Positions 56,082 to 57,811 of a stretch of 64,000 nucleotides of DNA are shown here, one piece after another. The notes below the pieces were generated by a model, which saw only the letters and a program-made list of their open reading frames with translations, did no database searches and was not told the DNA's origin. This DNA comes from a virus. How positions within the stretch are numbered: the first letter of the stretch is position 1; each line of letters opens with the position of its first letter. Made by a program: the position numbers and the translations under genes. Location of the stretch: IMG/VR virus record IMGVR_UViG_3300034071_000801, positions 1-64,000 of that record, one strand, 5' to 3'.

Positions 56082-56150
56082 TGATTGAGACAGGATTCGA
56101 ACCTGTGTGTAAGGATATATGTCCATCGCATACCATTCTGCCACTCAATC
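56082..56150 (-). tRNA. tRNA-like gene with non-canonical anticodon arm
   Basis: 69 bases directly after the tmRNA. The acceptor stem is perfect (GATTGAG with CTCAATC, discriminator A), the D arm is GCA-GAATGGTA-TGC, and the T arm is ACAGG-TTCGAAT-CCTGT. The anticodon arm region (ATGGACATATATCCTT) has only a 3-bp GGA/TCC stem around a six-base CATATA loop and no U33, so no anticodon can be assigned. It may be a degenerate tRNA, a tRNA mimic, or mark an atypical processing signal. Confidence 0.55.
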
Positions 56151-56171
56151 TAGTGGAGGTGGGGAGATTCG

Positions 56172-56873
56172 CATTTTGTTAATAACTTGTTGTCACATTA
56201 TTTGCATATGTCTAGGACATGTTGTAGATTTACACCATATCTTAAATTCTTTATCATGACACTACAATACCTTTCTGGATTCTTTGATGCTGATGGTTCA
56301 ATATCAATGAGTAAAAGTTCTAAAAACGATACTTACAAATGTATCAAAATAGATTTTACTAATACTTACATAACAATTCTTGAAGAGATTCAAAAATACT
56401 TGTTAAATGAGCATGGTATTAAAACACATATATCAAAAAAAGCAATTAGAAAAGAAAACCATAATATTGGTTATTCTTTATCTTGTAATAGTAATCAAAC
56501 TTGTTTGAAACTTTGTAAACTTATAGATTCTCATCATCCTAAGAAGTTACATCGTATAAATACAATTTTGAAATATCATGATGCAGTTACCATAAGAAAT
56601 GGTAAATACACAGATAAACAAGCTACAAGAAGATTAGCCTACGAGAGACTATTCTTTCTTCCTACATTTCTGTAGGGATCGGACTATATCATCATCTGTT
56701 CTAGATGTTGCTTACTGTGGGCTCACCGTAGTGTCCCTAGTCTCTGAACCTTCTCACTTCTTCCAGTGAGCTTGGCTGCTGATTGGCATATTACCCTCGC
56801 AGGTGTAACTTAGCGTTCCAGCAATTCAAGCAATTTTTAATTATACATCCCTGTATAATGAGTCCAATTTCCA
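56172..56873 (-). other. Group I intron in the tmRNA T-loop (702 bases)
   Basis: Inserted between U55 and C56 of the tmRNA T-loop. P1: exon GAGTT pairs with GACTC in the intron, with U-G at the splice site. Core elements follow in order: P (AATTGCTGGAACGCTAAG), Q (AATCAGCAGCC), R (TTCAGAGACTAG, 56748-56739) and S (GATATAGTCC, 56690-56681), then a P9 hairpin CCTACAGAAATGTAGG. The intron ends in G at 56172. A homing endonuclease lies on the opposite strand between P9 and the 3' splice site. Confidence 0.88.
56256..56675 (+). CDS. LAGLIDADG homing endonuclease, antisense within the tmRNA intron
   Basis: 139 residues from ATG 56256; longer starts upstream (TTG 56187, ATG 56208) are possible. A single LAGLIDADG helix reads YLSGFFDADGSIS near residue 6, so it should act as a dimer. 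HHPKKLHRINTILKYH and TRRLAYERLF are typical of the family. It is the only rightward gene in the leftward arm: the gene is on the strand opposite to the ribozyme, and its 3' end overlaps the P9 hairpin. No promoter of the Bacteroidota type is evident before it. Confidence 0.85.
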   Translation: MTLQYLSGFFDADGSISMSKSSKNDTYKCIKIDFTNTYITILEEIQKYLLNEHGIKTHISKKAIRKENHNIGYSLSCNSNQTCLKLCKLIDSHHPKKLHRINTILKYHDAVTIRNGKYTDKQATRRLAYERLFFLPTFL

Positions 56874-56986
56874 AACTCCCGTGTTGCTTACTTCAAAAAT
56901 ACAATTTTATACAGCTTATTTAGGGTCAAGCTAGGCTTAACGTTCCCACCACTCTATTTAATCTAATAGAGAAATCTTGAGGTAAT

Positions 56987-57070
56987 TTAGGCTGCTAAAC
57001 CAACGATTACATCCTCATTCAATAATGAGAATACTTTGTTCATGTTAGCTTCGATTTGTGCGTTTGCTCC
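56987..57070 (-). other. tmRNA tag reading frame
   Basis: GGA to TAA, 27 codons: starts GANAQIEAN and ends VIVGLAA. The CTA-GGA-GCA-AAC context matches the resume site of Bacteroidota tmRNAs (tag GENNYALAA type). The Leu-Ala-Ala end is the protease signal. At 27 residues the tag is longer than the usual 8-15. Confidence 0.7.
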
Positions 57071-57185
57071 TAGAGCCACTACACGACTTGTGTTTTTGCC
57101 ATTTAAAATAATTCACCTTAGTTTACAGTTATCTCTCTGGCTGAATTGTATAATCTATAATAACCAGTCAATTCCAGTCACCCCC

Positions 57186-57780
57186 ATTTCCCTCGTGTGA
57201 GGGCATGTATCAATTGTTGTGTTGTTGACCAATGATCAACTTGTATTAGCACCCATCATTATAGCCTTGCAAGTTAGCCCTCGCTGCTTACTTAATGATT
57301 AGGGTCACGTAGTTAATAATACAGTTTGCAGACTGTTAAAGTATAAAATTACAAAAATTACACTTATTAACTACTTGCTTGGAACTCATTTGTGTTGTGA
57401 CAAAGTGGCTTAAAAGCTTAGTCCAATCTCTTTCCTTTCTCAAGGGAACAACACATCTACCATTACTGATAGTATCTTTATGTAATGTTTAGTATTTACA
57501 CTGTATTTAAGCACAGGATTATTTCATTACAAAGGTATTCAATGTTTAGCCTGTTTGAGAGTTTATTCATTGCAACTCACAAGTGTTCCCTAACATCAGA
57601 GACCAATCCTACAAGTTTAATGTGTGTGGATGTAGGACCACATTCTTTTGTATCACTCTAGTGAGTTTAAAACTCATAATATGCATAATATAGGTAAGTT
57701 CAATGATACGCAGCACATACATTGACTATTTAAACTGCTATGTGGCGTTTATAGTCCCCAGTGATTATACAATATCCCTG
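57186..57780 (-). ncRNA. Candidate large structured non-coding RNA
   Basis: About 590 bases with no protein frame, between the promoter at 57781-57811 and the tmRNA. Perfect stems visible on the leftward strand include: GGTCCTACA with TGTAGGATT (57639-57605, two G-T), GAGTT...AACTC (57578-57559), TGTGTTGT with ACAACACA (57455-57391) enclosing CCTT-GAGA-AAGG, an 11-bp stem GTAGTTAATAA with TTATTAACTAC (57374-57309) enclosing ACAGT...ACTGT, GTTGATC...GGTCAAC (57240-57224) and CCCTC-ACAC-GAGGG (57203-57190). Size, density of stems, phage setting and tRNA/tmRNA neighbours recall GOLLD and ROOL RNAs. Membership is not shown. Confidence 0.6.
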
Positions 57781-57811
57781 CAAATATAATCTACAGGGAG
57801 TAACAAAACAA
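57781..57811 (-). promoter_or_regulatory. Promoter of the RNA island (TTG-N20-TATATTTG)
   Basis: On the minus strand TTG at 57811-57809, 20 bases, TATATTTG at 57788-57781, matching the Bacteroidota consensus. It lies just downstream of the VWA gene stop and would start the structured RNA near 57775. The CCCTG/CAGGG inverted repeat (57797-57776) overlaps it. Confidence 0.7.

What the first reader, a model, noticed from the sequence alone, without database searches (positions are those of the whole stretch)
57186..57811. Unknown large structured RNA upstream of the tmRNA, with its own promoter
About 590 bases without a gene hold at least seven perfect stems (up to 11 bp), a GNRA-capped hairpin and nested helices, right after a TTG-N20-TATATTTG promoter. 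GOLLD and ROOL RNAs are of this size, occur in phages and sit near tRNA genes. This could be a new member or a new class.
Basis: partly seen in the sequence, partly recalled or inferred. Interest (0 to 1): 0.8.

Follow-up and report, generated by a model that had tools for sequence, protein, structure and literature searches.

The report
New phage RNA with swappable arms
The gene-free stretch next to this phage's tmRNA is a row of several separate RNA genes, and the largest belongs to a previously undescribed RNA family, found in dozens of unrelated phages, with a fixed folded core and four arms that phages appear to swap with one another.

Summary
The stretch 57186-57811 (minus strand) is real structured RNA, but not one large RNA and not GOLLD or ROOL. 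Relatives show it is an array of RNA genes behind one conserved promoter, ending at the tmRNA: M1, a remnant of M2, M0, M4, M5. Modules are gained, lost and moved cleanly between phages.

M4 (57552-57246, 307 nt) is a new RNA class: no Rfam family matches, yet about 60 distinct copies lie in phage contigs of 4-373 kb. On 55 copies a 44-pair structure is 95.6% paired, 25 pairs show changes on both sides, and covariation is 0.249 against 0.079 for shuffles. The core is nearly invariant. Four arms are hypervariable, and near-identical arms recur singly in copies with different other arms and unrelated flanks; a few recur inside other RNAs, one a tRNA-like RNA. tRNA and tmRNA genes within 3 kb always share M4's strand (53 to 0).

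M0 (57641-57555) is a second new family, an H-type pseudoknot with covariation.

Function is inferred: a trans-acting RNA released from tRNA/tmRNA-type transcripts, with a fixed core and host-facing exchangeable arms, most likely counter-defence. No expression data were available.

The parts
57781..57811 (-). Promoter TTG-N20-TATATTTG (Bacteroidota type), overlapped by the palindrome TCCCTG..CAGGGA (57799-57775)
   Evidence: exact match in window; conserved in 18 of 21 related loci, palindrome kept by compensatory change in L011 and L024
57681..57772 (-). Module M1, small RNA closed by a GUAUAAU/AUUAUAC-type stem
   Evidence: present in L002, L006, L010, L016, L114, L138, L146; absent from other loci with the same promoter
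57642..57680 (-). Module M2, 3' half only (GAGUUUUAAACUC..GAGUGAUAC); full-length in relatives
   Evidence: full copies in L002, L004, L005, L017 and others
57555..57641 (-). Module M0, H-type pseudoknot RNA (GUGG/CCAC plus UCCUACA/UGUAGGA) with conserved 3' part GGUCUCUGA..GGGAACACUUGUGAGUUGCAAUG..AACUC
   Evidence: 18 copies aligned (A3), 93.6% paired, 22 double-change cells vs 6.8 in shuffles; 18 stretches in viral contigs; lies after the tmRNA in L013 and L022
57246..57552 (-). Module M4, 307-nt RNA of the new class: P1 hairpin, P2, P3, P4 with P4a, P5, P6, four hypervariable arms
   Evidence: 55-copy alignment A1, covariation, core model hit 57487-57430 at 82.7 bits
57191..57241 (-). Module M5, two hairpins (GUUGAUCAUUGGUCAAC, CCCUCACACGAGGG) just 5' of the tmRNA
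   Evidence: present in L002, L009, L010, L011, L012, L017 and others, with compensatory stem changes
56154..57185 (-). tmRNA, split in its T-loop by a group I intron; tag ANAQIEANMNKVFSLLNEDVIVGLAA*
   Evidence: homologous tmRNAs called in relatives; acceptor GGGGGUG/CACCUCC read by eye; reading frame, same tag called by ARAGORN in L003
56172..56873 (-). Group I intron in the tmRNA T-loop (Rfam match 56883-56660)
   Evidence: RF00028 94.8 bits; intron ends inferred from the T-loop sequence
56082..56150 (-). tRNA-like RNA with tRNA acceptor, D and T arms but no standard anticodon arm
   Evidence: RF00005 47.9 bits, not called by ARAGORN; family catalogued

Best explanation
The interval is a polycistronic array of independent structured RNA genes read from one promoter into the tmRNA. 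Its main part, M4, is a new class of free-standing phage RNA. SHOWN by comparison: separable modules; a conserved core fold in M4 (P2, P3, P4, P4a and P6 with covariation; P1 and P5 with little) carrying four hypervariable arms; arms shared singly between otherwise different copies; fixed orientation with tRNA and tmRNA genes; spread across unrelated phages; no constant protein neighbour. INFERRED: M4 is cut out of tRNA/tmRNA-type precursors and acts in trans. Its invariant core (with a probable P4a-loop pseudoknot) docks on one common partner, while the exchangeable arms are the surface that meets a varying host component. The most likely reason for such turnover is an arms race, that is, a decoy or inhibitor of host RNA-directed defence or RNA-processing enzymes. 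My confidence: array and new class 0.95, trans-acting processed RNA 0.8, counter-defence 0.35.
For: Modularity. Covariation of M4: 163 double-change cells vs 25.8 in shuffles, slid controls no higher than 57, 0 of 500 shuffles reach it; RNAalifold finds P3, P4 and P6 unaided, 11 of its 18 pairs with both sides changed. Strand: U-G pairs in 40 of 55 copies at one P3 pair fit only this strand as RNA. All 53 tRNA/tmRNA genes within 3 kb lie on M4's strand, in 25 of 59 loci, some 1-4 nt away. No protein family recurs across unrelated loci as a constant neighbour. 23 of 30 M4-bearing phage records lack a match to this phage's DNA polymerase. Arm exchange: 56 pairs of copies share an arm, 51 of these only one arm, 35 with unrelated flanks; some arms recur inside other RNAs or free-standing. 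Phage specificity: 1 stretch in genome contigs and 1 of 395 Bacteroidota genomes by model, on a contig with phage-like small packed frames. M0.
Against: No transcript data. The P4a pseudoknot is 99% paired but has no change on both sides, and the window copy breaks it (UUCCAAG instead of UUCUCAG). The arm hypervariability could be neutral drift at tolerant loop tips, spread by recombination. No defence target or partner is known. P1 and P5 show little covariation.
Confidence: 0.6

Rival explanations
1. One large ornate RNA of about 590 nt, a distant relative of GOLLD or ROOL, that assembles into a multimer.
For: Location near tRNA genes in phages, size of the whole interval; GOLLD and ROOL lie near tRNA islands and lack known function (PMC12286853).
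Against: No Rfam match; modules occur separately and in different orders; M4 is only 160-420 nt.
Confidence: 0.05
2. The interval is a regulatory leader of the tmRNA, acting in cis on its transcription or processing.
For: M5 lies just 5' of the tmRNA in several relatives; one promoter drives all.
Against: M4 and M0 occur beside tRNAs without a tmRNA call or after the tmRNA; L011 keeps promoter, M5 and tmRNA without M4.
Confidence: 0.07
3. M4 is the RNA part of a mobile element, for example an intron-like or guide RNA used by a homing nuclease, which explains its spread.
For: Two copies are interrupted by HNH endonuclease elements (L003, L036); widespread horizontal distribution.
Against: No nuclease is linked to the other copies; no Rfam match to group I/II introns or HEARO in M4; the core is conserved where no element sits.
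Confidence: 0.12
4. M4 supports phage translation: it binds ribosomes or tRNA-processing enzymes to help phage tRNAs and tmRNA work, and the arms are neutral decorations.
For: Strict co-orientation and adjacency with tRNA and tmRNA genes; some arms contain T-arm-like sequence such as ACAGG-TTTGAAT-CCTGT in L032.
Against: Neutral arms do not easily explain near-identical arms shared by phages with unrelated flanks.
Confidence: 0.25

Closest known systems
GOLLD and ROOL RNAs
   Same: Large structured RNAs of phages and prophages, often near tRNA islands, function unknown (PMC12286853).
   Different: No sequence or covariance-model match; M4 is shorter (160-420 nt), has four exchangeable arms, and is one of several RNA modules in an array.
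Stable RNAs C and D of the phage T4 tRNA cluster (from my own knowledge)
   Same: Extra stable RNAs of unknown role inside a phage tRNA cluster.
   Different: T4 RNAs are shorter; no link by sequence was tested; no exchangeable arms are known to me.
Phage tmRNAs with a group I intron in the T-loop (from my own knowledge)
   Same: The neighbouring tmRNA is of this kind.
   Different: Not the RNA in question; M4 and M0 have no intron or tmRNA features.
HEARO and other nuclease guide RNAs
   Same: Structured RNA of a few hundred nt, seen in mobile settings.
   Different: No Rfam match and no linked nuclease except as an insert in two copies.

Membership tests
GOLLD RNA | Match to the GOLLD covariance model | tested here: not met
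   No match at gathering score, up to E 5 in the window, or up to E 3 in six loci carrying M4 copies
GOLLD RNA | Encoded in phages near tRNA genes | tested here: met
   53 co-directional tRNA/tmRNA genes within 3 kb in 25 of 59 loci
GOLLD RNA | Many members over 800 nt, with a conserved 3' region | tested here: not met
   M4 is 160-420 nt and its conserved core is spread over the molecule
ROOL RNA | Match to the ROOL covariance model | tested here: not met
ROOL RNA | Homo-oligomeric nanocage | not testable with these tools
   needs cryo-EM or native gels
Group I intron | Match to the Intron_gpI core | tested here: not met
   Found only in the tmRNA T-loop at 56883-56660, not within 57190-57811
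tmRNA leader | Always attached 5' of a tmRNA | tested here: not met
   M4 copies stand in tRNA arrays without a tmRNA call, e.g. L058, L086; M0 lies after the tmRNA in L013 and L022
HEARO / nuclease guide RNA | Covariance-model match and adjacent nuclease gene | tested here: not met
   No model match; no recurrent nuclease neighbour

The most novel reading that the evidence does not exclude
Phages infecting Bacteroidota share a circulating pool of RNA hairpin cassettes that recombination plugs into conserved RNA scaffolds: M4, tRNA-like RNAs whose anticodon domain is replaced, and other small RNAs. Together they would form a combinatorial, fast-changing RNA surface against host defences, an RNA counterpart of variable surface proteins.
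Probability: 0.3. Interest if true: 0.95.

Novelty: categorically new. Interest (0 to 1): 0.82.

Why it matters
M4 is an undescribed RNA class with strong comparative support in dozens of unrelated phages, and a divergent copy lies in a cultured phage (Cellulophaga phi14:2), so it can be studied at once. Its design, a fixed core with arms exchanged one at a time, is one I know of in no other natural RNA. It also gives the open question of why phages keep non-tRNA RNAs in tRNA islands a family with clear handles: a core to mutate and natural arm variants to compare.

Tried and rejected
Single-sequence folding as evidence: rejected, z = -1.26. Rfam at permissive thresholds: only chance hits such as SL2 and manA-II. 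Blastn of the interval against known phages: only phi14:2 in the M4 core is meaningful. A protein partner near M4: none recurs beyond related loci. Arms moving between different arm positions of M4: none found. Labelling the host phage crAss-like: dropped; its DNA polymerase is under 60% identical to every record and its best hits are phages of diverse Gammaproteobacteria. A kissing contact between the P1 loop (CAUU) and the P3 loop (AAUG) is possible but both are invariant, so untestable.

Full report
WHAT IS THERE. The window is part of a 111,404-nt virus record. On the minus strand a MoxR-type ATPase and a 463-aa gene (59216-57825) are followed by a promoter (57811-57781), about 590 nt without a gene, and the tmRNA (5' end 57185), whose T-loop is split by a group I intron; a tRNA-like RNA follows at 56150-56082. 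Rfam reports nothing in 57190-57811 at gathering threshold, and only chance-level matches when the threshold is lowered.

IT IS AN ARRAY. A search with the 463-aa gene found 28 related loci in viral contigs. The stretch between that gene and the tmRNA is modular: 113 to 2711 nt long, built from a few blocks that come and go with clean borders. L002 has M1-M2-M5, L010 M1-M5, L011 only M5, L009 M3-M4-M5, L015 M3 without M4; in L013 and L022 the M0 block lies after the tmRNA. The window has M1, half of M2, M0, M4, M5. The promoter TTTG-N19/20-TATATTTG is shared by 18 of 21 relatives, overlapped by a palindrome TCCCTG..CAGGGA that stays palindromic by paired changes in L011 and L024.

M4 IS A NEW RNA CLASS. 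A pattern from the M4 core found 84 stretches in viral contigs, about 60 of them distinct copies with the core motifs in order. MAFFT alignment of 55 copies (A1) shows a nearly invariant core and four hypervariable insertions. The structure P1-P6 with P4a and a P4a-loop pseudoknot has 44 pairs; 95.6% of cells pair, 25 pairs change on both sides, 163 cells carry double changes (shuffles 25.8), covariation is 0.249 (shuffles 0.079, slid controls at most 0.082), and none of 500 shuffles reaches any of the five measures. RNAalifold recovers P3, P4 and P6 without being told. Six of the seven P4 pairs show three to five pair types each. The pseudoknot, P1 and P5 are consistent but poorly tested by covariation. 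Wobble U-G pairs in P3 fit only this strand as RNA. No Rfam family matches M4 in six loci that carry copies, at E up to 3.

ARMS. Outside the core the copies differ almost completely, yet the same arm recurs: 56 pairs of copies share an arm at 85% identity or more over 80% of its length, 51 of them only one arm, and 35 of the 56 pairs have no similar flanking DNA. Examples are one P5 arm in L006, L014, L074, L081 and L084, and one P4 arm in L018, L034, L073 and L077. A few arms recur outside M4: the L043 P6 hairpin inside a tRNA-like RNA of L063, the L050/L063/L073 P6 hairpin in another sequence of L070, L087, L088 and L112, the L070 P5 arm standing alone in L060, the L099 P6 arm alone in L074. 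No arm was found at a different arm position of M4. I read this as exchange of arms by recombination between core segments; direct proof of events is lacking.

CONTEXT. Within 3 kb of M4 all 53 tRNA and tmRNA genes lie on the same strand, none on the other (25 of 59 loci). The fetched stretches of L058 and L086 carry 22 and 18 tRNAs. No protein family goes with M4 across unrelated loci. The phages are diverse: 23 of 30 tested records lack a match to this phage's DNA polymerase. Bacterial genomes are nearly free of it: one stretch in the genome collection and that same genome alone among 395 Bacteroidota genomes; the contig has the small packed frames of a phage. A divergent copy lies in the cultured Cellulophaga phage phi14:2, over frames annotated as hypothetical proteins.

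M0. Eighteen copies align as an H-type pseudoknot with a conserved 3' part; 93.6% of cells pair and 22 cells carry double changes against 6.8 in shuffles. The further-pair-types measure does not exceed shuffles (197 of 500), so the support is good but weaker than for M4.

HOW IT PROBABLY WORKS. Shown: separable RNA genes, a conserved fold, recurring single arms, co-orientation with tRNA genes. Inferred: processing from a tRNA/tmRNA-type transcript, action in trans, an invariant core for a common partner and variable arms for a variable one. Counter-defence is my first choice because host RNA-directed defences are what would make a phage change the outside of an RNA while keeping its inside, but it is a choice at about 0.35; a translation-support role and a mobile-element role remain open.

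COMPARISON. Its genomic habit resembles GOLLD and ROOL (PMC12286853), but membership fails on the model match and on size. I file it as a new class. 'Categorically new' refers to the RNA class and its exchangeable-arm design; as a large structured phage RNA beside tRNA genes it has known company.

LIMITS. No expression data, no partner, no function. Copies were collected with a pattern from the best-conserved core, so conservation near that pattern is partly by selection. P4, P4a, P5 and P6 lie outside the pattern; the P3 pairs overlap it, but their middle three positions were left free.

Noticed in passing
window 57185-56154, intron 56873-56172, frame 56208-56675 (+): The tmRNA is split in its T-loop by a group I intron whose 3' part is overlapped, on the opposite strand, by a LAGLIDADG endonuclease gene. 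L012 and L015 carry a like intron.
   Followed up: partly
window 56150-56082; L012 7589, L013 7507, L032 4161, L063 1180, L081 2750 and others: Many of these phages carry RNAs with tRNA-Leu-like acceptor, D and T arms in which the anticodon region is replaced by a variable insert; total lengths run to 158 nt. Possibly a second RNA family with an exchangeable domain.
   Followed up: partly
L003 8690-9720; L036 3570-4480: Two M4 copies are interrupted by elements encoding HNH-like endonucleases that share the 3' tail TATGAGATATG...AGTTCTCAGC; no group I or II intron model matched in L003.
   Followed up: partly
L002-L043, for example L006 3330-3733: The phage tmRNAs encode unusually long tags, 24-32 residues in many relatives.
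   Followed up: no
L019 7257-7321, L028 from about 7179: The neighbouring 463-aa gene appears interrupted by a sequence like the tmRNA intron.
   Followed up: no
viral contigs, e.g. L005 6728, L047 8819: A further short module, M3 (TAGCTAAGCTGTG..GAAGCTA), occurs in 40 stretches and often abuts M4.
   Followed up: partly
L003 7574-7606; L014 5786-5818: Rfam DUF805b RNA matches inside the array region of two relatives, at the point where other genes are inserted.
   Followed up: no
upstream of M4 in L049, L070, L087, L112 (GGTTTCAGTTCCTATGTATAAACTGGCAGG..) and in L064, L098, L110 (CCCACTGAAATTTGGGCAAAGAGTTT): More unnamed repeated RNA-like blocks stand beside M4 in several phages; the repertoire looks larger than the modules described here.
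   Followed up: no
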